From an uncultured Latescibacterota bacterium (GTDB lineage Bacteria > Latescibacterota > UBA2968): a DNA stretch of 64,000 nt. This document shows positions 9,942 to 19,907 of the stretch, piece after piece. The DNA lies in NCBI GenBank assembly GCA_958295785.1, contig OY282377.1, forward strand, positions 2,060,394 through 2,124,393. Reading direction: 5' to 3'. How positions within the stretch are numbered: position 1 is the stretch's first letter; the number at the start of each line of letters is the position of its first letter. A model generated the notes under the pieces. It saw nothing but the letters and a program-made list of their open reading frames with translations. It ran no database searches and had not been told where the DNA came from. The position numbers were made by a program, and so were the translations under genes.

Positions 9942-12900
9942 ATGAGCGACTTTTTCAACATCCTGTTTTCCGGAACACTCTTTGCCGACGATTTTCTGCG
10001 GCAAACTGTCGTTCACTCAGACGCCTATCGCGCATTGGACGATGCGGCACTCGGCGCCATAGAAAGCGCGTTCCGGGAAATTTTCGACCGATTCCCCACG
10101 GATCAGATGCCCAACGAGAGCCAGACCGAGGACGACTTGATCTGGCCCATCCTGCGGCTTCTCGGCTGGACCGAGCACCTGCGGCAACAAAACCTCGCGC
10201 CGCGCGGTCGATCTCATGTGCCCGATGGCCTGCTGTTTGCCGATGACGAGACAAAAGACCGCGCCAACACCTGTCAAGAGTCTCAACGCTATGCGTTTGG
10301 CCTCGCCATTGTCGAGTCCAAGCGGTGGCACACAACACTCGACCGCGGCGCCAAAAACGATGGCGAACGGATCGCGCCTTCAACGCAGATGCTCCGCTAT
10401 TTGCGGCGCGTTGATGATCTGACCCAGGGCAAGCTCCGCTGGGGTATCCTGACCAATGGCGCGAAGTGGCGGCTCTATGACCAAGGTGCCCGATCCGTCT
10501 CAGAACAGTTTTTTGAGATCGATCTCGCCGCGCTGTTCAACCTGCATTCTCAAAGCGATTTCACCCTCTCCGATGATGAAAGACGACACCATCTAAAGTT
10601 GTTTGTGCTGTTCTTTCGGCGGGAGAGTTTTGTCGGCGATCCCACGTTTCACCAATACGCGCTTGACGAAGGGCGTTTCTACGAAGAGCGCGTCGCCAAC
10701 AATCTTTCCGGGTTGGTCTTCGACGACATTTTTCCCCAACTCGTACGTGCCATTATCCAAGCCGCGGCCGATGCGTCGTTGCCCCATGTGCGCGATGCCG
10801 CCTTGACCCTGCTCTACCGCCTGTTGTTCATCCTCTATGCCGAAGACCGCGACCTGTTGCCCGTGCGCGATAGACGCTACGACGATTACAGCCTGCGAAA
10901 AGTGCGCGACGATGTGCGTGCGCGAAAAGAAAGAGGCGATACCTTCTCGGGCACCGCGGCCCGCTACTATCACGCCATTGACGATTTGTGCCGGATCATC
11001 GACAAGGGCGATTCCTCTATCGGTCTGCCGCCGTACAACGGGGGCCTGTTTGACCGCGAACGCATGCCGCTTTTATCGACTATCCGCCTCGGCGATCAGG
11101 TCGTGACCGATGTGATCGACGCCCTGTCCTTTGAGAAGACGCCCGAAGGCCGCCGCTATATCAATTATCGCAGCCTGAGTGTTGAGCAACTCGGATCGAT
11201 CTACGAGCGGTTGCTCGAACACGAGGTCATACGCGATGGCGATGGGGTTGTGAGCCGTCCAAACATTTTTGCGCGCAAGGAATCGGGTAGCTACTACACG
11301 CCGGATGGACTCGTGCGGCTGATTATCGAAAAGACGGTTGGCCCTTTGGTGCAGGACAGGATGGATGCCTTTGCCAGCAAGGTGGCAGAACTCAAGAGAA
11401 GCCGCCGCGCCAAGCGGCTCAAAATTGCCGAACTCAAGCGCGTTGATCCCGCCGTGAACCTGCTCGATCTGAAAATCTGCGACCCGGCGATGGGTTCAGG
11501 GCCTTTTTTGGTGGGCCTTGTGGATCATCTCGCGGACCGCGTGATTGCGGCCATGGCCGAAGACGCGATAGCGGGTTATGTCTCGCCGCTGACCGAGCGC
11601 GTTGACGCCATCCGCGACACCATTATGGAAAACGCCGAGATGAACGGCTGGGCCATTGACGCCGAAAAACTCGACGACCGCCACATCATCCGGCGCATGG
11701 TGCTCAAGCGGTGCGTGTATGGCGTGGATAAAAACCCGATGGTGGTTGAACTCGCCAAGGTGTCGCTGTGGCTCCACACGTTCACCGCAGGCGCGCCATT
11801 GAGTTTTCTCGATCACCACCTGCGCTGCGGCGATTCGCTCATCGGCCTGCGCGTCAAGGAGGCCACCGACGAGTTGAGCCGACTCGGCGGGTTGTTCGCC
11901 GCCAGCGCCATTGCCGGGGCCGAAGCCGCCACCGAGAGCATGCAGCGCATCGAGGACATGTCTGACGCGGATGTGGCCGAGGTGCGGAAATCCGCATCCC
12001 TATTTGGGCAAGTGGAGGAGACGACCGCCGACCTGCGCGGCCTGCTCGACTTTCTCGGCGGCTTGCGCTATCTGACCGCGGGGATGAAGAAACGAGAACA
12101 CGCCACTTATGAAGGGCCGCTGGTGACAACGCTCGGCAGACAGCCGGACAAGGCTTACGCGCTTTTGTCCCGAGGGCCCAATCATGCAGGCGATAGGGCA
12201 TCCGACATCGGCGACGCGGCTTGGTTGAGCTTTTCCGAGTTGTGGCGCGAGGCCAAAGCCATTGCCCACCGCGAGCGTTTTTTGCATTGGGAGGCCGCGT
12301 TCCCCGGCGTGTGGCGACACTGGCAAAACCAGCGTCCCCAAGGCGGCTTCGACGCGGTGATCGGCAACCCGCCGTGGGATCGCATCAAGCTACAGGAGGT
12401 CGAGTGGTTCGCTAACCGCGCGCCCGAATTGGCACGCGCTCCGACGGCAGCGGCGCGGCGAGCCGCCATCCAAAAACGCCGCAACCAGGGCGATCCGATA
12501 GCCGCCGCGTTCGACGCCGCAAAAGAACGGGCAGACAAACTCGGTTCACTGGTGCGCGCCTCTGGTCACTACCCCCTGCTCGGCGGCGGCGACATCAACC
12601 TCTATTCCCTGTTCGTGGAGCGGGCGATGCGTCTCGTAAAGCCGGACGGACTCATCGGCTTGCTCACGCCATCCGGCATCTACGCGGACAAAACTGCTGC
12701 CCGCTTCTTCAAATCCGTTTCCACCGCCGGGCACGTCGCCTGCGTGTTCGATTTCGAGAACAAGAAAATTTTCTTCCCGGATGTTCACGCCTCATTCAAG
12801 TTCTGCGCCCTCGTATTCGGCGGCGAGAAACGCGCGTTCGCCGAGACGCACTGCGCCTTCTTTCTCCACGACATCGCAACGGTCGACGATCCCCAACGTT

Positions 12901-14033
12901 GCTTCCCGCTGACGCCGGACGACTTCGCCCGCTTCAACCCAAACACCGGCACCGCGCCCGTCTTTCGCAACCGCCGCGACGCCGACATCACCCGCCACAT
13001 CTACGAACACCACCCCGTGCTCGTAGATCGTTCAGGGGATAAAGAGTACCGTGTTTGGCCGGTGCGTTACAACAGAATGTTCGATATGACCAACGACTCC
13101 GGCCTATTTCGCACGCGGGAAGAATTGGAAGAGCGGGAGGGCGCGTATCCCATCGGCGGCAATCGCTTCAATAGCCCGAGTGGAGAATGGTTTCCGTTGT
13201 ACGAGGGCAAAATGGTTCAGGCTTATGATCACCGCGCCGCCAGCATCGTCGTTAACCCAGAGAATCGACACCGCCCTGCACAATCGCAACAGGCGACATT
13301 GGAGCAACACAAAAACCCGGACTGGCTCCCAGAGCCTCGATTCTGGGTCAGCACAGACTCTTGCAAGTGGCCCAAAGGACTGGAATGGATCGTATCCTTC
13401 AAGCACGTTACAGCCCCGACCAATGTCCGAACAATGATTGCCTCTATCTTGCCACGCGCCGGTTTTGGCAACAGTTTGCCAATCCTATTACCCATCGCCG
13501 AAGACCGCGATGCCGTGCAAGCATACAAAGAGGGGGCGTATCTGCTGACCGCGAATTTGAACGCTTTTGCATTCGATTTCGTTACGCGCCAGAAAGTGCA
13601 AGGCCAAAATTTGAACTGGTTCATCGTCGAGCAACTCCCCGTTGTCCCGCCGGATCGATTCGCGTCCGTTCGCTTTGGCCCCAAAACCGCCGGGGAGATC
13701 GTCCGCGAAGCCGTGTTGGAACTCACGTACACCGCGCACGACATGGCCCCGTTCGCCCGCGACTTGGGCTATGTCAATGAATCGGGCGATGCGCTACCGC
13801 CTTTTGTTTGGAACGCGGACCGCCGCTTGCGTTTGCGCGCTCGCCTCGACGCGGTGTTTTTCCACCTCTACGGCGTTACGGACCGCGATGATGTGCGCTA
13901 TGTCTATTCGACATTTCCCATCGTCGAGCGGCAAGAAACCGCCGCCTACGGAACCTACCGCTCCCGCGACCTGTGCCTCGCTTACATGAACGCACTGGCG
14001 GCTGGCGATGCGGATGCTGATCCCGTTGTGTGA
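9942..14033 (+). CDS. Single-chain restriction-modification enzyme (Eco57I-type methylase with N-terminal nuclease)
   Basis: This 1363-residue protein combines cleavage and methylation. Residues 60-190 look like an HsdR_N/PD-(D/E)xK nuclease: VPDGLLF (Asp95) and AIVESKRW (Glu125, Lys127). Residues 440-640 hold a gamma-type N6-adenine methylase, with SGSYYTPDGLVRLI, the AdoMet-binding motif I DPAMGSGPFL (514-523) and GVDKNPMVVELAKVSLW. The catalytic motif IV NPPW is at 809-812 (Eco57I family). The C-terminal third, with segments such as EGKMVQAYDHRA, is the likely target-recognition region. The architecture fits type IIG/IIL-like enzymes that methylate and cut the same site. Start context is weak. 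The DUF2971-like gene follows 45 bases later on the same strand. It could instead act as the methylase-nuclease of a larger defence system. Confidence 0.85.
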   Translation: MSDFFNILFSGTLFADDFLRQTVVHSDAYRALDDAALGAIESAFREIFDRFPTDQMPNESQTEDDLIWPILRLLGWTEHLRQQNLAPRGRSHVPDGLLFADDETKDRANTCQESQRYAFGLAIVESKRWHTTLDRGAKNDGERIAPSTQMLRYLRRVDDLTQGKLRWGILTNGAKWRLYDQGARSVSEQFFEIDLAALFNLHSQSDFTLSDDERRHHLKLFVLFFRRESFVGDPTFHQYALDEGRFYEERVANNLSGLVFDDIFPQLVRAIIQAAADASLPHVRDAALTLLYRLLFILYAEDRDLLPVRDRRYDDYSLRKVRDDVRARKERGDTFSGTAARYYHAIDDLCRIIDKGDSSIGLPPYNGGLFDRERMPLLSTIRLGDQVVTDVIDALSFEKTPEGRRYINYRSLSVEQLGSIYERLLEHEVIRDGDGVVSRPNIFARKESGSYYTPDGLVRLIIEKTVGPLVQDRMDAFASKVAELKRSRRAKRLKIAELKRVDPAVNLLDLKICDPAMGSGPFLVGLVDHLADRVIAAMAEDAIAGYVSPLTERVDAIRDTIMENAEMNGWAIDAEKLDDRHIIRRMVLKRCVYGVDKNPMVVELAKVSLWLHTFTAGAPLSFLDHHLRCGDSLIGLRVKEATDELSRLGGLFAASAIAGAEAATESMQRIEDMSDADVAEVRKSASLFGQVEETTADLRGLLDFLGGLRYLTAGMKKREHATYEGPLVTTLGRQPDKAYALLSRGPNHAGDRASDIGDAAWLSFSELWREAKAIAHRERFLHWEAAFPGVWRHWQNQRPQGGFDAVIGNPPWDRIKLQEVEWFANRAPELARAPTAAARRAAIQKRRNQGDPIAAAFDAAKERADKLGSLVRASGHYPLLGGGDINLYSLFVERAMRLVKPDGLIGLLTPSGIYADKTAARFFKSVSTAGHVACVFDFENKKIFFPDVHASFKFCALVFGGEKRAFAETHCAFFLHDIATVDDPQRCFPLTPDDFARFNPNTGTAPVFRNRRDADITRHIYEHHPVLVDRSGDKEYRVWPVRYNRMFDMTNDSGLFRTREELEEREGAYPIGGNRFNSPSGEWFPLYEGKMVQAYDHRAASIVVNPENRHRPAQSQQATLEQHKNPDWLPEPRFWVSTDSCKWPKGLEWIVSFKHVTAPTNVRTMIASILPRAGFGNSLPILLPIAEDRDAVQAYKEGAYLLTANLNAFAFDFVTRQKVQGQNLNWFIVEQLPVVPPDRFASVRFGPKTAGEIVREAVLELTYTAHDMAPFARDLGYVNESGDALPPFVWNADRRLRLRARLDAVFFHLYGVTDRDDVRYVYSTFPIVERQETAAYGTYRSRDLCLAYMNALAAGDADADPVV

Positions 14034-14078: not shown

Positions 14079-15146
14079 GTGAACAACAGAGAAGAGAGGA
14101 TGGAAAAGCTAAAAACGCGCGTAGAGGAGGGAATGAGAGTACTTAAAAAAGACGAGTATCTCGGTTTGAGCTATGTAGATGAGATTGTGATTCCAGTGTT
14201 GAAGGAGGTGTTGCAAGACTTGTGCCTCGAAATCGAAGAACGTCATAAGCTTGATGAACCTGAAAGCTGGCAAGAAAATTTTGTCATTCACTACACAAGT
14301 ATCGATACTCTCGTTTCCATGCTTCAGCAAGAAGCAAAGAACAAACAGAATGCAGCAAAGAACGGACAGAATGAGGCGAAGGACGAGCAAGAATCTTCAA
14401 AGGACGAACAGAATGCTTCGTTGCGGCTGTACGACTCCGTACATTTCAACGATCCAGACGAGGGCAATTACTTTTTTCGCAATCTGGACCTGCCGAAAAA
14501 ATACGATTGGCTAGGCAAAAAAAAGGAATCCCACGCCTATATCGCCTCTTTTATTATTCCCGCTATTGAAAAAAATAGCGACAATCTCGTGTTTTGGTGT
14601 ACTTATGGGAAAGAGGGCGAAGGATGCTCTTTGAAGCTCCGCATCCCGAGGAATCGATTGCGGAAAGTTCTTTACGGTGCTGATGAGGATAAATGCACGG
14701 AGGAGATCCTACAGCGTATCTTGGATATTCTAGATAATGCTCTAAAGCCGTTGATAAGCATTGGGGAACGGTCACTGAAGGAAAAGGTCCGAGAAAAATT
14801 AGCAGAGGTCATTTGGAGGTATTTGGAAAAAATTCGCTACTTGTACAAGAGCGAAGCGTACAGTTATGAGCAAGAATGTCGTTTTGTTATTCCTGAATTA
14901 GATACTAAAAAAGACAAAATCTGCTTTGAGGATCAGGAGCAAAACAATTCTCCTGACGTAAGACACTACTATGAGCATGAGGATCTCAAAGTCAAAAATA
15001 TATTGACTACTGGCAGTTCAATCACGCTCGGCCCTCGTGTACCTTATCCCTACAATATGAGCTATTACATCAAAAGCCTGCTTACTAAAGCAGGCTTAGC
15101 TGGTCCGGAAATCAAGACCTCCAAAATATCCTATCGAAAACCTTGA
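14079..15146 (+). CDS. DUF2971-like protein with heptad repeats
   Basis: This 355-residue protein starts at GTG 14079, 7 bases after AAAGGAGG. DUF2971-like features are FVIHYTSIDTLVSML (about 68-82), RLYDSVHFNDPDEGNYF (about 118-134), DNLVFWCTYGKEGEGCSLKL (about 168-187), and YLYKSEAYSYEQECRFVI (about 250-270). The function of the family is unknown, although it is common in defence neighbourhoods. Four seven-residue units rich in Lys, Gln and Asn (about 85-112) interrupt the first domain and correspond to a 21-base tandem repeat. The DNA is more AT-rich than its neighbours, suggesting recent transfer. It follows the restriction-modification gene and ends tail-to-tail with the JAB-E1 gene, overlapping it by 35 bases. 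Confidence 0.7.
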   Translation: MNNREERMEKLKTRVEEGMRVLKKDEYLGLSYVDEIVIPVLKEVLQDLCLEIEERHKLDEPESWQENFVIHYTSIDTLVSMLQQEAKNKQNAAKNGQNEAKDEQESSKDEQNASLRLYDSVHFNDPDEGNYFFRNLDLPKKYDWLGKKKESHAYIASFIIPAIEKNSDNLVFWCTYGKEGEGCSLKLRIPRNRLRKVLYGADEDKCTEEILQRILDILDNALKPLISIGERSLKEKVREKLAEVIWRYLEKIRYLYKSEAYSYEQECRFVIPELDTKKDKICFEDQEQNNSPDVRHYYEHEDLKVKNILTTGSSITLGPRVPYPYNMSYYIKSLLTKAGLAGPEIKTSKISYRKP

Positions 15147-16581
15147 CGATGTTTCGCCAAATCCCGCGCCATATAGATTGCGGCGGTTCTTTGTGTTCTT
15201 CTTCCAAATAGGGTGGATTCTCCGCATCCCCCTGTGCGCGGCGTTGGCGGAAAGAGCAATGGGGATGGCATTCGTCATTGATGATTCGCGTCTCGGCGGT
15301 TACAAATTGGTAGTCCTGTTGCCGCACCAACGGCCACCACTCCTCGGCGAGCAGGTAGCGGAGCATCAAATTCACCTCCATTCCGGCAACGCCCAAGCTG
15401 AACGGAAATACATTTTGATTGCCGACCCGTTCTTCAGGCGGCAAGTTGTTGATATAAGACGGATCGTCGAGCGACCCGTCCAATTCCATGACCACCATGC
15501 TCGAATTGTATTGTTTGTTGCAACGCAGACATTGATGATAGGGCGTGACGATGTGTGCGCGCCAATGCGCTGAAAACAGGCTGTCTTTGCGGCGGTCTGT
15601 TTCCACTGCAATGCCGCCATCAATGACCGGAATCAGATGGGCGTGTGCGAGATAATTTAAGACATCGCGGGCAACGGGTCGGTCAACGCAACTGAAAAGG
15701 AGATCGCAATCCAATGCGGCCTTGTAAGCGGTGCTGTTGTGAACCGAAACCGGCAAGGGCGTTATTTGGATGCTTTCAGCGGTCGCATTGCGCTGCATCG
15801 CTCGCGCCGCCAAATCGACCTTTAATTGACCGATGTCATGTACTGTTCCGTAAAGCAAGCGGTCGAGATTGTGCTCTTCAACTTTATCGGGATCGATCAG
15901 GGTGACTTGTGCTATTCCGATTCGCGCCATCGCCTCGGCGACGATGCAACCGACGCTACCAAGCCCGACAATACCGACGTTCAAACGCGAGATAGTATTC
16001 TGCGCTTCGCGCCCCCATGTATCAAAAGTGCGCCTGAGTATCTCTCTCCGTAGTGGAGGTGGCGCGCTGTTGTCATTAAAAAAAAATTTGTAGGACTGCG
16101 GCCCGACAACGCGGACCTTCTCGCACCAATGGCGGCGCATCTGCCTGTCCTCTCTCTCCCAAAAACGCGCACTCCAATAACCGTCTGTTCCGATGGTCAA
16201 TCCCACCAACGGCAAGTCGGTCGCTCCCGCCGGATACGCCAGAACATCCCGCTCTGCTTCGACATCCGTAGCACTCATTCCCTGCCATCCATCGCTTGGA
16301 TGGCTGTGCATAAAGGCCAACCCCACTTTTTTGTCTCGCGCTATTTTCATCGCCCGTGCGAGGTAAGCTGGCTCGAAACTGGCGTTGCCGTGCAGAAGCC
16401 GCTCGCCTTTTTTAGGGAGAATGATTTCGTCTATCAGCGCGGCGCGGCGCAATTGTCCCGTGGAAGGACGCCACAGGGCAAAGCACAGATCTTCCTGCCG
16501 TTTGTCGCGCCGATAATGCTGCAACAGATGCTCGCTGGCGGTTGAATCCGCCTCTGCGGTGAGAACGGTCTCGAACCTCAT
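15112..16581 (-). CDS. JAB peptidase-E1 (ThiF-like) fusion protein
   Basis: This is the last gene of the ubiquitin-like operon. The start chosen is ATG 16581, which overlaps the E2 stop as ATGA, giving 489 residues. Residues of about 1-150 are a JAB/MPN deubiquitinase-like domain with HSHP (His92, His94), Ser103 and Asp106. The His-to-Ser spacing is one residue longer than the standard JAMM motif. Residues 195-445 are a ThiF/E1 adenylation domain: VGIVGLGSVG (203-211), LIDPDKVEEHNLDR (Asp230, Arg241), Lys254 and Asp300. CLRC (351, 354) and CHPHC (438, 442) probably bind zinc. No cysteine lies between residues 355 and 437, where ThiF-type catalytic cysteines usually sit. The expected role is adenylation of the Ubl C-terminus and removal or trimming of Ubl. 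Confidence 0.88.
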   Translation of the reverse strand: MRFETVLTAEADSTASEHLLQHYRRDKRQEDLCFALWRPSTGQLRRAALIDEIILPKKGERLLHGNASFEPAYLARAMKIARDKKVGLAFMHSHPSDGWQGMSATDVEAERDVLAYPAGATDLPLVGLTIGTDGYWSARFWEREDRQMRRHWCEKVRVVGPQSYKFFFNDNSAPPPLRREILRRTFDTWGREAQNTISRLNVGIVGLGSVGCIVAEAMARIGIAQVTLIDPDKVEEHNLDRLLYGTVHDIGQLKVDLAARAMQRNATAESIQITPLPVSVHNSTAYKAALDCDLLFSCVDRPVARDVLNYLAHAHLIPVIDGGIAVETDRRKDSLFSAHWRAHIVTPYHQCLRCNKQYNSSMVVMELDGSLDDPSYINNLPPEERVGNQNVFPFSLGVAGMEVNLMLRYLLAEEWWPLVRQQDYQFVTAETRIINDECHPHCSFRQRRAQGDAENPPYLEEEHKEPPQSIWRGIWRNIVKVFDRIFWRS

Positions 16582-16949
16582 ACGTCTTTCCAAATTCGTC
16601 GCAAGTGTTCGCTTATGTAGGCACCCATGTGCTTTGTCGGTAGCCGATCCCATATTTCCCCTGGGGGCCTACTCATTGCGACCCATTCGCGGCCATTTGC
16701 GTTGTATCTTTCAACCGCACCGCCTTTCCCGTCGTCAATTGGCGGCGTGACATGGATCCAATGAGGGGGATAATCGGGGTACCCGATTTCTTGGAAACTG
16801 ACGCCTACCGTGACCTTCTCGCCCCTGTGGGAACCGGTCTCGACCGTGTAGTTAAAAGCAACCACTTTTCCGTGCGGGCTATCAGACCACGATGTTTCAT
16901 ACCCCAAGGCTTCCAACTCAGCCTTTATCCGGTTGATGTCGTCGGACAT
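16578..16949 (-). CDS. E2/UBC-fold protein (prokaryotic E2 family E-like) without cysteine
   Basis: This 123-residue protein lies between the Ubl genes and the JAB-E1 gene, with which it overlaps by ATGA. The UBC core is visible: an N-terminal helix (INRIKAELEALGYE), strands (VVAFNYTVET, KVTVGVSFQEIGYPDYPP), the post-strand segment HWIHVTPPID and a C-terminal helix (GAYISEHLRRIW). E2 proteins carry Ubl as a thioester on a cysteine, but this protein contains no cysteine at all. It may act as a UEV-like scaffold, use another nucleophile, or belong to a branch that never forms thioesters. I place it near Pfam Prok-E2_E from memory of the motif and the gene order. A profile search would settle the family. 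Confidence 0.8.
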   Translation of the reverse strand: MSDDINRIKAELEALGYETSWSDSPHGKVVAFNYTVETGSHRGEKVTVGVSFQEIGYPDYPPHWIHVTPPIDDGKGGAVERYNANGREWVAMSRPPGEIWDRLPTKHMGAYISEHLRRIWKDV

Positions 16950-16960
16950 TTTTCTCTACC

Positions 16961-17209
16961 TTATGCTACTAGCGTGGGTTGATTGGGAATCGTGATGAAG
17001 CGGTTGTCTTCCTCCAGATCGATCCAGTCATTCCAGCCATACTGTCTCTTGTTGCCCTGAAGGAGGTAAGCCTCCGGATTACCGGGAATGGCACCTCTCT
17101 CTTCAGCGAGCTTCAGAATATCCCGTGCGACGACTCCCAGATACGGCATCGTCATTTCGATGCCGTTTGCTTGGAGCGAAAAGGAACGGCTCTCCTCTTT
17201 TTTTTTCAT
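16961..17209 (-). CDS. Ubiquitin-like (Multi_ubiq-type beta-grasp) protein A
   Basis: This 82-residue protein starts at ATG 17209 behind AGGAGG. An upstream in-frame start at 17239 lacks this site. It follows the bacterial Multi_ubiq pattern: SFSLQANGIEMTM strands, the helix ARDILKLAEERG, the loop PGNPEAYLLQG, and strands WIDLEEDNRFITI. The C-terminal tail is NQPTLVA, with no Gly-Gly. It is a tandem duplicate of the 77-residue gene upstream, about 70 percent identical in protein, with an evident DNA match that includes the Shine-Dalgarno region. It is expected to be the modifier or adenylation substrate for the JAB-E1 protein. The E2-like gene starts 11 bases later. Confidence 0.8.
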   Translation of the reverse strand: MKKKEESRSFSLQANGIEMTMPYLGVVARDILKLAEERGAIPGNPEAYLLQGNKRQYGWNDWIDLEEDNRFITIPNQPTLVA

Positions 17210-17250
17210 TTTATGCCTCCTGATAATTCTATCGGACATTATAGAAAAGG

Positions 17251-17484
17251 CTACGCCACCGGCGTGGGTTGGTTGCGAATCGTGATGAAGCAGTTGTCTT
17301 CCTCCAGATCGACCCAGTTATCCCAGCCATACTGTCCCTTGTCGCCCTGAAGGATATAATCCTCCGGCTTGCCGGGGATGGCACCGCTCTTTTCTGCGAG
17401 TTCCAAAATATCGTGCGCGACGACTCTCGCAGTTTGCATCGTCATTTCGATGCCGTTCACCTTCAACACAAAAGAAGTTGCCAT
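17251..17484 (-). CDS. Ubiquitin-like (Multi_ubiq-type beta-grasp) protein B
   Basis: This is the first gene of the operon, 77 residues, with AGAAGGA 7 bases before its ATG. The fold signs match protein A: SFVLKVNGIEMTM, helix AHDILELAEKSG, loop PGKPEDYILQG, strands WVDLEEDNCFITI, tail NQPTPVA. It carries one cysteine (EDNCF) where A has arginine. The pair looks like a recent duplication that diverged mainly in the first loop (MPYLGV versus MQTARV). Having two Ubls could give two modifiers or one plus a decoy. It sits directly behind the promoter at 17569-17597. Confidence 0.8.
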   Translation of the reverse strand: MATSFVLKVNGIEMTMQTARVVAHDILELAEKSGAIPGKPEDYILQGDKGQYGWDNWVDLEEDNCFITIRNQPTPVA

Positions 17485-17568: not shown

Positions 17569-17597
17569 AATATAGCCGATGGCACTGGGCATGTCAA
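17569..17597 (-). promoter_or_regulatory. Near-consensus sigma-70 promoter of the Ubl operon
   Basis: On the minus strand TTGACA (17597-17592) and TATATT (17574-17569) are separated by exactly 17 bases. Transcription would start about 75 bases before the Ubl-B gene. A 57-base block containing this promoter is duplicated at 19851-19907. Confidence 0.8.
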
Positions 17598-17798
17598 GGA
17601 TGGGAGAGTGCCGAAGAAACATTGGGCGTTCTTTAGAACGAATCTACGAATCAGTGAATCGAAACGCACAGTGGTTGGGCGGGGACTTAGAAGCCCTAAC
17701 ATAAAGAGTTGACATGGATTTGTGAGAGGCCGATTTTCTTCTCAGCCCAACCCTTACAACGTCCATGCCCGGCATCTTTATCGGGCGAGGAGGAACAA

Positions 17799-18194
17799 AT
17801 GACCAAACCACTCGTGAGCGATGAACTCTGGGAAAAGGTCCAACCCCTTTTGCCGGTTCCCAAGCCGAGACGATTCCGCTACCCCGGACGTAAGCGCATT
17901 GATGACCGCAAGGCGTTGACCGGCATTCTATTCGTCCTGAAGAGCGGCATCCCGTGGGAGCAGTTGCCCCAAGAGATGGGGTGGGGTTCCGGGATGACAT
18001 GCTGGCGTCGTCTGAAGGAGTGGCATGAAGCAGGCGTGTGGGAGCGGCTTCATCATCTGCTGTTGTCCAAACTGCGAGCGGCCGATGGCCTGGACGGGTC
18101 TCGTGCCTGCGTGGACAGCGCCTGCCTGCGTGCGGTAGGTGCTGGGGGGAAAAACCGGCCCCAATCCCACAGACCGCCGCAAGCCCGGGCGTAA
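17799..18194 (+). CDS. IS5-family transposase, N-terminal frame
   Basis: The start ATG at 17799 follows GAGGAGGAACAA, giving 131 residues. The frame shows the DUF4096-like N-terminus typical of IS5 transposases (LVSDELWEKVQPLLP, FRYPGRKRIDDRKALTGILF, SGIPWEQLPQEMGWGSGMT) and the first catalytic aspartate region (SRACVDSACLRAVGAG). At about 18143 a GGGGGGAAAAA run marks where the homology jumps to the frame one base ahead. This frame then ends at an unrelated TAA at 18194. Full transposase needs a +1 (or -2) frameshift at that run. Confidence 0.85.
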   Translation: MTKPLVSDELWEKVQPLLPVPKPRRFRYPGRKRIDDRKALTGILFVLKSGIPWEQLPQEMGWGSGMTCWRRLKEWHEAGVWERLHHLLLSKLRAADGLDGSRACVDSACLRAVGAGGKNRPQSHRPPQARA

Positions 18195-18609
18195 GCATCA
18201 TGGGACCACCGATGCCAACGGGCTACCTCTGGCCGCGATTGTGACCGAGGCGAACCGGCCAGAGGTGACGCAATGGTTGCCATGGGTGGACGCCGTGCCT
18301 GCGGTCAGAGGCAAACGTGGTCGTCCGCGCCGCAGACCCCAACGGCTGTATGCAGACCGTGCCTATGACTCGAAGGCATGCCGGAAGGCCCTGCGTGCGC
18401 GCCACATCTGGCCGGTGATCGCCCGGCGGGGTACAGCGCATGGCAGCGGGTTGGGCGTGTACCGGTGGGTCGTTGAGCGGACGCTGGCCTGGCTCCGGCA
18501 GTTCCGCAGACTGCGGGTGCGCGACGAGCGCAGAGCGGACATCCATGAGGCGTTCCTCTCCATCGGCTGTTCACTCCTCTGTTTCAGACGCTTGATTTCT
18601 TTATGTTAG
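18139..18609 (+). CDS. IS5-family transposase, C-terminal frame
   Basis: This frame has no start of its own with a ribosome-binding site and is probably reached by frameshifting near 18143. It continues the DDE domain: KTGPNPTDRRKPGRKHH, ANGLPLAAIVTEANRPE, RPQRLYADRAYDSKACRKAL (second aspartate), YRWVVERTLAWLRQFRRL (catalytic glutamate) and RADIHEAFLSIGCSLLCFR. The stop at 18609 lies within the right inverted repeat. If frameshifting does not occur, the element is defective. Confidence 0.8.
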   Translation: MLGGKTGPNPTDRRKPGRKHHGTTDANGLPLAAIVTEANRPEVTQWLPWVDAVPAVRGKRGRPRRRPQRLYADRAYDSKACRKALRARHIWPVIARRGTAHGSGLGVYRWVVERTLAWLRQFRRLRVRDERRADIHEAFLSIGCSLLCFRRLISLC

Positions 18610-18818
18610 GGCTTCTTAATGTTAAAAACCACATTGTTAAAAACTACATCTGCATCATCTTTATCATTGAGATGATATTCACCGTTCCCCTCAGAGAAAT
18701 TGTATCCCAATGTAACGCCATAATTTTCACTGAGAAGGGATCTTTGTAAAAGTGGCCCCTTTTCGACCCAAACTACATTCTGAAGGTTATACACTTTGTT
18801 TCGGTATTCATAGATCAT
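18606..18818 (-). CDS. Small protein of unknown function, 3' end altered by IS insertion
   Basis: The start ATG at 18818 has CAGGAGAG 6 bases upstream, giving 70 residues (MIYEYRNKVYNLQNVVWVEKG ... in short). No family is recognised. The last four codons and the stop lie in the insertion sequence end. Reconstructing the pre-insertion DNA by joining the two TTA flanks, the frame would have continued about 15 codons (SPPNHCAFRFTDS) to a TAG. The DNA is AT-rich compared with the core genes. It is preceded on the same strand by the 133-residue unknown gene. Confidence 0.5.
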   Translation of the reverse strand: MIYEYRNKVYNLQNVVWVEKGPLLQRSLLSENYGVTLGYNFSEGNGEYHLNDKDDADVVFNNVVFNIKKP

Positions 18819-18932
18819 GTTTCTCTCCTGTGGAATGATGTTTTTTAGCAACCTGCCTTGTCAGACGCCTGCCGGTCCGTGCAGACGTGACACCCCTTTA
18901 CAAGCAGGTGTTTCGGCTTATCTCCTACTTGC

Positions 18933-18997: not shown

Positions 18998-19033
18998 TTT
19001 TTTGCCCTCTTTTTTGCCCTACTTTTTTGCCCT
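18998..19033. repeat. Three tandem TTTTTTGCCC units
   Basis: Units of about 12 bases repeat three times and include the stop codon of the 133-residue gene. Expansion or contraction here would change that protein's C-terminal lysine run. Confidence 0.6.
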
Positions 19034-19420
19034 ATTGAGAGTATACAATGGCTCCCCAACTTTTCTCCAATATCTATAATCAGCAATTTCTTTGTCCGTA
19101 GGGGCTTTCACATTGAACACACATTTTGCTGAATAGACATGGTTTCCTTCTTCCGTGGCATCCTCGTATCTAAGCCAAAGTTGCAACCGGTGTCTTGGCG
19201 AAGGAGGAGTGCAACAAAGAGTAGAAAAATCGGTCACAGACGAAACATCTTTGAGATTTTTCTCAATGTCAAAAACACCATAAAGCATAGGCCCTGACCA
19301 ACCATAAGGATGGGTCGCTCTTTTTTCTTCTTGCCAAATCAAAAAGAAACGACCTTTAGTGTTTCTGAGCACCAAAAAAGCATCATCAAAGAAAATCTCA
19401 TCATTCATCTTGAATGCCAT
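19019..19420 (-). CDS. Protein of unknown function
   Basis: This 133-residue protein starts at an ATG preceded by GAAAGGAGAACAGT, a good ribosome-binding site. Aromatic-rich beta segments are visible (DDAFLVLRNTKGRFFLIWQE, LQLWLRYEDAT, NHVYSAKCVFNV), followed by a basic C-terminal tail that ends inside a tandem repeat. No known domain is recognised. The DNA is AT-rich. It lies downstream of the Ubl remnant and may once have been under the duplicated Ubl-type promoter at 19854-19882. Confidence 0.6.
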   Translation of the reverse strand: MAFKMNDEIFFDDAFLVLRNTKGRFFLIWQEEKRATHPYGWSGPMLYGVFDIEKNLKDVSSVTDFSTLCCTPPSPRHRLQLWLRYEDATEEGNHVYSAKCVFNVKAPTDKEIADYRYWRKVGEPLYTLNRAKK

Positions 19421-19479
19421 ACTGTTCTCCTTTCAATTTCATGTTTTGGATCATTTTTCCCCACCGGTGAAAAAGAAAA

Positions 19480-19531
19480 TGCTACTGATGTAGATTGGTT
19501 GCGAATCGTGATGAAGCGGTTGTCTTCCTCA
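19480..19531 (-). pseudogene. Remnant 3' end of a third ubiquitin-like gene
   Basis: The minus strand encodes EEDNRFITIRNQSTSVA, matching the ends of Ubl A (EEDNRFITIPNQPTLVA) and Ubl B (EEDNCFITIRNQPTPVA). The DNA matches base for base over most of the stretch. The upstream part of the gene is missing and replaced by a HicB-like fragment. The NQ-x-T-x-VA tail is conserved in all three copies. Confidence 0.75.
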
Positions 19532-19597
19532 AGCCTTGGCGTCATAGCCGCCTTCAATCGCCTCGGTCACTTCAAAAATAATTTCGCTTGGTCTCAT
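19529..19597 (-). pseudogene. N-terminal scrap of a HicB-like antitoxin
   Basis: The 22-codon frame MRPSEIIFEVTEAIEGGYDA (plus KA) resembles the first strands of HicB/DUF1902-like antitoxins (EIIFEVTE..EGGYxA). It ends at a TGA formed exactly where the Ubl remnant begins, so it is a recombination joint, not an intact gene. Confidence 0.5.
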
Positions 19598-19850: not shown

Positions 19851-19907
19851 AAAAATATAGCCGATGGCACTGGGCCTGTCAAGGATGGGGGAGTGTCGAA
19901 GAAACAT
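19851..19907 (-). repeat. Second copy of the Ubl-operon promoter block
   Basis: This 57-base block matches 17566-17622 with about four differences and keeps TTGACA (19882-19877), a 17-base spacer and TATATT (19859-19854). It faces the hsdS, HicB and Ubl scraps. With the Ubl remnant it marks the outer limits of a former second Ubl cassette. Confidence 0.75.

What the first reader, a model, noticed from the sequence alone, without database searches (positions are those of the whole stretch)
16578..17484. Conjugation chemistry is missing: E2-fold has no cysteine, Ubls end in Val-Ala
The 123-residue E2-like protein contains no cysteine. Both Ubls and the remnant third copy end NQ-x-T-x-VA instead of Gly-Gly. 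The E1 has no cysteine between its two zinc-ligand pairs. Either the Ubl is only adenylated, another nucleophile is used, the JAB domain trims the tail first, or this is a non-conjugating signalling branch. Conservation of the VA tail in three copies argues that it matters.
Basis: partly seen in the sequence, partly recalled or inferred. Interest (0 to 1): 0.78.

Follow-up and report, generated by a model that had tools for sequence, protein, structure and literature searches.

The report
Cysteine-free bacterial ubiquitin-like conjugation branch
A bacterial gene cluster resembling the ubiquitin-tagging machinery lacks the usual reactive cysteine and glycine tail, and its relatives in many distant bacteria lack them too while keeping other fixed residues instead, so it looks like a working branch of a recently described pathway rather than a broken copy.

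Summary
The window holds Ubl-Ubl-E2-JAB/E1 on the minus strand. The E2-fold protein has no cysteine, both Ubls end -TPVA/-TLVA, and the E1 has no cysteine between its zinc pairs. The 'third copy' is only a 39-57 nt fragment that reads on past VA. Cysteine-less E2 in such operons was published in 2006 (Iyer et al., row 6e). The closest solved relatives are Citrobacter Bub proteins (BubB, BubCD, BubA). In 28 same-architecture loci no E2 cysteine column is conserved (at most 2 of 28), but Ser93 is invariant (28/28). The VA/VS tail is nearly universal; Gly-Gly is absent (0 of 27). JAMM and adenylation residues are intact. On an E1 tree, VA-tailed operons separate cleanly from DUF6527-containing Bub-type operons, mostly Gly-tailed (100/99); this genome carries one of each. 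The VA branch has conserved neighbours: a DUF2971-like gene tail-to-tail with E1, or an AriA/NsnB-like ATPase plus a PIN-like protein. Most likely it adenylates and transfers the Ubl without a cysteine thioester; the nucleophile (Ser93 best candidate) and target are inferred. New variant of a known kind.

The parts
17251..17484 (-). Ubl1, 77 aa beta-grasp ubiquitin-like protein ending -NQPTPVA
   Evidence: ORF; AlphaFold model from 27-row alignment, pLDDT 88.0; best PDB matches are bacterial multi-ubiquitin proteins and ubiquitin, 9EA8_B BubA at rank 9
16961..17239 (-). Ubl2, 92 aa Ubl ending -NQPTLVA; tandem duplicate of Ubl1 (225 nt at 81%)
16578..16949 (-). E2/UEV-fold protein, 123 aa, no Cys; invariant Ser93 in the MSRPP motif
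   Evidence: AlphaFold pLDDT 93.4; top PDB match by Foldseek and VIA is Citrobacter BubB 9EAE_C (Z 9.2, 116 residues, rmsd 4.0); weak Prok-E2_E hit, 17.4 bits against cut-off 25
15112..16581 (-). JAB (JAMM) domain fused to ThiF-type E1, 489 aa; start overlaps the E2 stop (ATGA)
   Evidence: ThiF 8e-31; family profile matches Citrobacter BubCD 9EA4 at 4.4e-33 across both domains; JAMM residues E30, H92, H94, S103, D106 and E1 residues G206, G208, G211, D230, D232, R241, K254, D300
17569..17597 (-). promoter-like site TTGACA-17-TATATT (11 of 12) upstream of Ubl1
   Evidence: consensus match only; inside a 57-nt direct repeat with 19851-19907
14079..15146 (+). DUF2971-like 355-aa protein, tail-to-tail with the E1 (35-nt overlap); a conserved neighbour of this branch
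   Evidence: homologue in the same place in 9 of 13 mono-Ubl loci; weak DUF2971 and PDC-S31 hits
19471..19533 (-). fragment of a third Ubl 3' end, no stop after VA
19854..19882 (-). second copy of the TTGACA-17-TATATT promoter-like site, ahead of the fragment

Best explanation
This is a Ubl activation and (probably) conjugation system related to, but a separate branch from, the Bub pathway. Steps shown by sequence or model: Ubl fold, E2/UEV fold without cysteine, JAB peptidase with all JAMM residues, ThiF-type E1 with an intact adenylation site but no crossover-loop cysteine. Inferred steps: the E1 uses ATP to adenylate the C-terminal carboxylate of the Ubl tail (T-P-V-A, or T-P-V/-VS after trimming); the E2-fold protein docks on the JAB-E1 as BubB does on BubCD and receives or positions the activated Ubl without a cysteine thioester. 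The most likely acceptor or intermediate is the invariant serine of its [x]S[R/x][P/H] motif (oxyester) or a target nucleophile attacking the acyl-adenylate directly. The JAB domain trims extended or E2-fused Ubls and reverses conjugates. The conserved DUF2971-like neighbour (or, in the sister subclade, an AriA/NsnB-like ATPase with a PIN-like protein) is the likely partner or output, as in a defence or stress module.
For: E2 model: rank 1 in PDB by Foldseek (weak, E 0.089) and VIA (Z 9.2) is Citrobacter BubB in complex with BubCD(D104A). E1 profile matches BubCD across JAB and E1 at 4.4e-33. Ubl model matches bacterial multi-ubiquitin proteins, ubiquitin and BubA. JAMM E/H/H/D in 27 of 27 usable same-branch E1s, Ser in 25 (Asn in 2); R241, K254, D300 in 43 of 43. 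Ser93 invariant in 28 of 28 E2s; in a 44-row wider alignment Ser in 41 of 44, the other 3 with a Ser nearby in a similar W/F-rich motif. Tails: of 28 loci a Ubl was found in 27: 16 end exactly -(P/L)VA, 3 PVA plus 5 residues, 1 TRVS plus 4, 2 PPAV, 5 are Ubl-E2 fusions with (P/T)V(S/A) at the junction. VA branch is one side of an E1-tree branch, 31 rows, support 100/99. Conserved neighbours.
Against: No biochemical evidence. Foldseek E-values for E2 are all above 0.001 and VIA Z 8-9 is only slightly above the background of ordinary E2s/UEVs. Where Ser93 lies relative to the canonical E2 cysteine could not be mapped: sequence alignment is confident only up to the PP motif and no coordinates were accessible. 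Ser and its neighbours could be conserved for structure. A non-canonical E1 cysteine (C153, C292, invariant 27 of 27) is not excluded. The text of the Bub mechanism paper was not held.
Confidence: 0.6

Rival explanations
1. Adenylation-only signalling: the E1 makes Ubl-AMP, or modifies the Ubl terminus as MccB does its peptide, and the E2-fold protein is just an adaptor; no conjugate is formed.
For: No conserved Cys in E2 and none in the E1 crossover region in 24 of 27; E1 core resembles MccB, TcdA and MoeB, which act without a Ubl thioester (the biochemistry is recalled).
Against: The JAMM site is kept in every usable relative, though most Ubls (16 of 27 loci) already end at VA and need no trimming, which points to an isopeptidase role; sister pathway is titled 'protein conjugation'.
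Confidence: 0.2
2. A non-canonical cysteine of the JAB-E1 (C153 in the linker or C292 in the Rossmann core) carries the thioester, and E2 is a scaffold.
For: C33, C153 and C292 are invariant in 27 of 27 same-branch E1s.
Against: In the wider family C153 is Cys in 29 of 43 and C292 in 33 of 43; C292 lies just ahead of the Mg-binding Asp strand, not in the crossover loop of known E1s (recalled); C33 sits in the JAMM Glu strand.
Confidence: 0.12
3. Degenerate or dead copy in this genome.
For: Tandem and fragmentary Ubl copies and an IS5-like element next door.
Against: All ORFs intact, translational overlap kept, all family-invariant residues present, and the 'missing' residues are missing in the whole branch.
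Confidence: 0.03
4. The Ubl acts mainly by self-assembly (filaments), with the enzymes regulating assembly.
For: Closest Ubl structures are bacterial multi-ubiquitin proteins, several solved as filaments by PDB title.
Against: The window Ubls are single-domain; one domain per protein is unlike the three-domain filament proteins.
Confidence: 0.05

Closest known systems
Bub (bacterial ubiquitination-like) pathway: BubA/BubB/BubCD (PDB 9EA4, 9EA8, 9EAE; Ye et al. 2026, Gong et al. 2025, title level only)
   Same: Ubl, E2-fold protein without conserved cysteine, JAB fused N-terminally to ThiF-type E1; E2 best fold match is BubB; E1 profile hit to BubCD 4e-33; Ubl matches BubA; Ubl-E2 fusions exist in both
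   Different: Ubl tail -TPVA instead of Gly (BubA construct 155-229 maps to a terminal Gly in the IncHI2 plasmid homologue L039); no DUF6527 gene; zinc CxxC pairs kept where Citrobacter/Enterobacter Bub lost them; different conserved neighbours
Iyer et al. 2006 operon type 6e (polyUbl, inactive E2/RWD, JAB-E1, metal-binding protein)
   Same: Gene content and the missing E2 cysteine are described there
   Different: Metal-binding C-x3-C...H-x2-C protein not found; the VA tail and the DUF2971/AAA-PIN neighbours are not in the passages and section read
Canonical Ubl conjugation (ubiquitin, Bil/BilABCD, CBASS Cap2)
   Same: E1-E2-Ubl-JAB logic
   Different: No E2 cysteine, no E1 crossover cysteine, no Gly-Gly
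UEV/RWD domains (TSG101 and others)
   Same: Cysteine-less E2 fold; TSG101 UEV among the VIA matches (Z about 7)
   Different: Here encoded with its own Ubl and E1, with an invariant Ser

Membership tests
Bub pathway (features inferred from PDB titles, IncHI2 operons L039/L040 and passages of PMC13373217) | Beta-grasp Ubl of the multi-ubiquitin type | tested here: met
   Model matches 9D59, 8U38, 9EA8_B
Bub pathway (features inferred from PDB titles, IncHI2 operons L039/L040 and passages of PMC13373217) | E2-fold BubB-like protein without catalytic Cys | tested here: met
   Top match 9EAE_C by both methods; no conserved Cys
Bub pathway (features inferred from PDB titles, IncHI2 operons L039/L040 and passages of PMC13373217) | JAB-E1 fusion homologous to BubCD | tested here: met
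   E 4.4e-33 over profile 49-378
Bub pathway (features inferred from PDB titles, IncHI2 operons L039/L040 and passages of PMC13373217) | Gly-ended Ubl (after processing) | tested here: not met
   VA/VS tails in this branch, 0 of 27 Gly-Gly; BubA 155-229 maps to Gly229 of L039 (assumes a 3-residue tag on the crystal construct)
Bub pathway (features inferred from PDB titles, IncHI2 operons L039/L040 and passages of PMC13373217) | DUF6527 gene in the operon | tested here: not met
   HMM found it in 10 of 16 annotated loci and in L002/L049, none in the window or the same-branch loci; flanks of L027 and L031 are short or broken
Bub pathway (features inferred from PDB titles, IncHI2 operons L039/L040 and passages of PMC13373217) | Cap-type regulator upstream (CapW, CapH+CapP, CapK+CapS) | tested here: inconclusive
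   None seen by the window operon; HTH plus M78 peptidase upstream in L012, M78 in L029. PMC13373217 itself gives Cap regulators for only part of Bub operons
Iyer 2006 type 6e | 1-3 Ubl repeats, cysteine-less E2/RWD, JAB fused N-terminal to E1 | tested here: met
Iyer 2006 type 6e | C-x3-C-x(35-38)-H-x2-C metal-binding protein | tested here: not met
   No DUF6527-like ORF (taken here as that protein) in the branch
Canonical E1-E2 thioester conjugation | E2 catalytic Cys | tested here: not met
Canonical E1-E2 thioester conjugation | Ubl C-terminal Gly-Gly | tested here: not met
Canonical E1-E2 thioester conjugation | E1 Cys between the zinc-ligand pairs | tested here: not met
   absent in 24 of 27, not conserved in the other 3
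Covalent conjugation as such | Ubl covalently linked to targets | not testable with these tools
   needs biochemistry

The most novel reading that the evidence does not exclude
A cysteine-free and glycine-free branch of ubiquitin-like conjugation, spread over at least seven phyla, in which a -TPV-A carboxylate is adenylated and passed through an invariant E2 serine as an oxyester, coupled to interchangeable effector modules (DUF2971-like protein, or AriA/NsnB-like ATPase plus PIN-like nuclease) as a defence or stress system, and running in the same cell beside a Gly-tailed Bub-type pathway.
Probability: 0.25. Interest if true: 0.85.

Novelty: new variant of a known kind. Interest (0 to 1): 0.6.

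Why it matters
Ubiquitin-like transfer is taught as Gly-Gly plus cysteine thioesters. A branch that lacks both, yet keeps a fixed tail, a fixed E2 serine, an intact adenylation site and an intact JAB in distant bacteria, makes it directly testable whether Ubl transfer can run without thioesters, and which tail chemistry an E1 can take. The genome holding both a VA-tailed and a Bub-type operon is a natural test bed for orthogonality. The conserved neighbours suggest outputs to test in phage assays.

Tried and rejected
Degenerate copy or sequencing error: rejected by the family alignments. Third Ubl copy as independent support for the VA end: rejected; it is a fragment that reads on. Single-protein PDB searches with the E2 (0 hits at E 10) and Ubl (one chance hit) failed; E2 and Ubl profiles gave only weak hits, so identification rests on models plus the E1 profile. 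Mapping Ser93 onto the E2 cysteine by profile alignment with four eukaryotic E2s was inconclusive. Viral contigs gave no relative; phage records only ThiF-core matches covering at most about a third of the query. The DUF6527/tail split is one event on the tree, so the tail-DUF6527 correlation is a clade difference, not repeated independent evidence. Two haloarchaeal relatives (L033, L038) have neither VA nor Gly tail nor DUF6527, and two DUF6527 operons (L034, L045) end FGHGNH and FGGGV, so 'Gly tail' is clean only for the other DUF6527 operons. Tails of L009 and L010 (PPAV) and L016 (TRVS) break the exact VA rule. No Ubl was found in L023. Of 28 E2s, 15 do contain one or more scattered cysteines; only 13, the window's among them, have none. 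L031's E1 is broken and was left out of E1 counts; L021 is the same locus as L004 and was counted once. Alignment A5 left out L018, L019 and L031 (25 of 28). Alignment A6 held two partial duplicate rows by slip and was replaced by A7; A7 leaves out L010 and L023 and holds the window twice. I could not read Ye et al. 2026, Gong et al. 2025, Chambers et al. 2024 or Burroughs et al. 2011 (not held); I have only a vague memory that the Bub paper involves non-cysteine chemistry and did not use it as evidence. That the VA branch is not described rests on searches of the held library and on the passages read of PMC1779556, PMC13373217, PMC12687455, PMC12355090 and PMC11354881; it may be in the unread papers.
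Full report
What is there. On the minus strand lie, in order, Ubl1 (17251-17484, 77 aa), Ubl2 (16961-17239, 92 aa), an E2-like protein (16578-16949, 123 aa) and a JAB-E1 protein (15112-16581, 489 aa), the last starting inside the E2 stop codon (ATGA). A strong promoter-like site, TTGACA-17-TATATT, precedes Ubl1. The E2 has no cysteine; the Ubls end TPVA and TLVA; the E1 cysteines are at 33, 153, 212, 292, 298, 351, 354, 438 and 442, so the crossover region between the zinc pairs has none. The 'third copy' is a short repeat at 19471-19533 that contains NQSTSVA and reads on without a stop. It lies behind a second copy of the promoter repeat (57 nt, 95%), so a promoter-Ubl unit was probably duplicated and then decayed.

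Folds. Pfam sees ThiF clearly and Prok-E2_E only weakly (17.4 bits, cut-off 25). AlphaFold models from family alignments are confident: E2 pLDDT 93.4, Ubl 88.0. For the E2 the first PDB match by both programs is 9EAE_C, 'Citrobacter BubCD(D104A)-BubB' (Foldseek E 0.089, probability 0.87; VIA Z 9.2, rmsd 4.0, 116 residues), followed by ordinary E2s and TSG101 UEV. The margin is small and the Foldseek E-value is not significant on its own. The Ubl matches bacterial multi-ubiquitin proteins (9D59, 8U38, 9D5B), ubiquitin, and BubA (9EA8_B). The E1 profile matches BubCD across both domains at 4.4e-33, while other E1s match only over the Rossmann part.

Same-branch relatives. One genome scan gave 27 loci; L021 is the same locus as L004. 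With the window and L004 that makes 28 loci, from Pseudomonadota, Nitrospirota, Chloroflexota, Gemmatimonadota, Actinomycetota, Acidobacteriota and Rhodothermota as the record titles and the tree labels give them. In this genome's own neighbourhood the system is sporadic: 2 of 64 genomes of the phylum set (window's own included) carry the E2, and 2 of 100 relatives the E1.

E2. In the 28-row alignment no column has more than 2 cysteines and 13 rows have none; invariant are G39, P62, S93, P95, W100. In a 44-row alignment with 16 annotated plasmid homologues the serine column has Ser in 41 of 44; the other three carry a Ser nearby in RWSHL or FSWH. The most frequent Cys column has 3 of 44. So a serine, not a cysteine, is the conserved side chain. 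Whether it stands at the cysteine site could not be mapped.

Ubl tail. Of the 28 loci a Ubl was found in 27 (none in L023). Sixteen end exactly in -(P/L)VA; L014, L015, L022 have PVA plus five residues; L016 TRVS plus four; L009 and L010 PPAV; L024 and L027-L030 are Ubl-E2 fusions with (P/T)V(A/S) at the junction. Val is present in 26 of 27 rows of alignment A7 and Thr in 25 of 27, as conserved as the core of the domain. In di-Ubl proteins only the last domain carries the motif.

E1 and JAB. In 43 aligned proteins H92, H94, D106, R241, K254 and D300 are present in 43 of 43, E30 in 42, S103 in 41; in the 27 same-branch rows all JAMM residues are kept except Asn for Ser in L009 and L010. The residue roles are assigned by motif from recalled JAMM and MoeB biochemistry. 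Cysteine between the zinc pairs occurs in 3 of 27 and is not conserved; C33, C153 and C292 are invariant in 27 of 27.

Two branches. Plasmid records gave 132 and 201 E1 matches for two queries; I fetched 17 stretches and used 16 (L032 lacks the upstream genes). Ten carry DUF6527: the IncHI2 plasmid operons of Enterobacter and Citrobacter (Ubl-E2 fusion, JAB-E1, DUF6527), Rhizobium, Robbsia, cyanobacteria, Paracoccus, Bradyrhizobium, Deinococcus. Their Ubls end TTTEG, TTEGGAA, an internal NGE at the fusion, or FGHGNH and FGGGV. The crystallised BubA 155-229 maps to Gly229 of L039 if the construct has a three-residue tag. Four actinobacterial plasmid operons end APVA, GGVA, GGVA, ADVA and lack DUF6527. 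On a 44-row E1 tree the 31 VA rows, the 11 DUF6527 rows and the 2 haloarchaeal rows separate without exception (100/99, 100/99, 100/100). That is a single split, not repeated evidence. The window's own genome carries both: a Prok-E2_E (9e-38), Multi_ubiq, DUF6527 operon lies at G000:C1 about 2975593-2978202, its Ubl ending TEG-ENVITASI.

Neighbours. Clustering the flanking ORFs of the VA loci showed two conserved partners. In 9 of 13 mono-Ubl loci a DUF2971-like gene lies tail-to-tail with the E1, in most with a 3' overlap (35 nt in the window; L006 has none); its alignment keeps HYT, NDPxEG and ExExR, which recalls ADP-ribosyltransferase motifs but was not tested. In 9 of 9 di-Ubl loci with a usable E1 an ATPase of the AriA/NsnB/GajA kind follows E1 on the same strand, and 8 of 9 have a further small ORF with PIN-like acidic residues (one weak PIN hit). 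Upstream, L012 has HTH plus M78 peptidase and L029 an M78 peptidase, the arrangement that PMC13373217 calls CapH+CapP and reports for part of Bub operons. PMC13373217 also says that Bub has not been shown to protect against phage.

Mechanism. Shown: folds, architecture, conserved residues. Inferred: adenylation of the VA carboxylate, BubB-like docking of the E2, transfer without cysteine, JAB trimming and reversal. Ser93 as an oxyester carrier is the most economical guess, about one in four to one in three.

Literature. Iyer et al. 2006 (section 14 and table passages read) described this operon type and its inactive, cysteine-less E2. Ye et al. 2026 and Gong et al. 2025 were seen only as titles in reference lists. 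So the cysteine part of the finding is known; the VA-tailed, DUF6527-free branch, its invariant serine and its conserved neighbours I did not find in the papers I could search.

Noticed in passing
G000:C1 about 2975593-2978202 (L049 5594-8203, minus): A second, Bub-type operon in the same genome: multi-ubiquitin Ubl, Prok-E2_E, JAB-E1, DUF6527.
   Followed up: partly
window 17689-18616 and L049 4581-5391: An IS5-like element with 19-nt perfect inverted ends sits just upstream of the window operon; a transposase of nearly the same sequence sits next to the second operon.
   Followed up: no
window 14079-15146: DUF2971-like gene conserved tail-to-tail with the E1 in 9 of 13 related loci; invariant HYT, NDPxEG, ExExR.
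   Followed up: partly
L004 5390-7201, also L017-L020, L022, L023, L025, L026: AriA/NsnB-like ATPase plus PIN-like small protein directly downstream of di-Ubl/E2/JAB-E1 operons.
   Followed up: partly
window 9942-14033: Large DrmMI / type IIG-like methylase gene next to the module; L004 has an Eco57I/MmeI-type methylase upstream too.
   Followed up: no
window 18606-18851 and 19019-19420, minus: Two small ORFs without any family match lie between the decayed promoter-Ubl copy and the operon.
   Followed up: no
L046 4775-6561 (Paracoccus marcusii plasmid): DUF4433 and macro-domain genes follow a Bub-type operon, as in DarT-DarG pairs (recalled).
   Followed up: no
L033, L038 (haloarchaeal plasmids): Ubl-E2-JAB/E1 operons in archaea with neither VA nor Gly tails and no DUF6527.
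   Followed up: no
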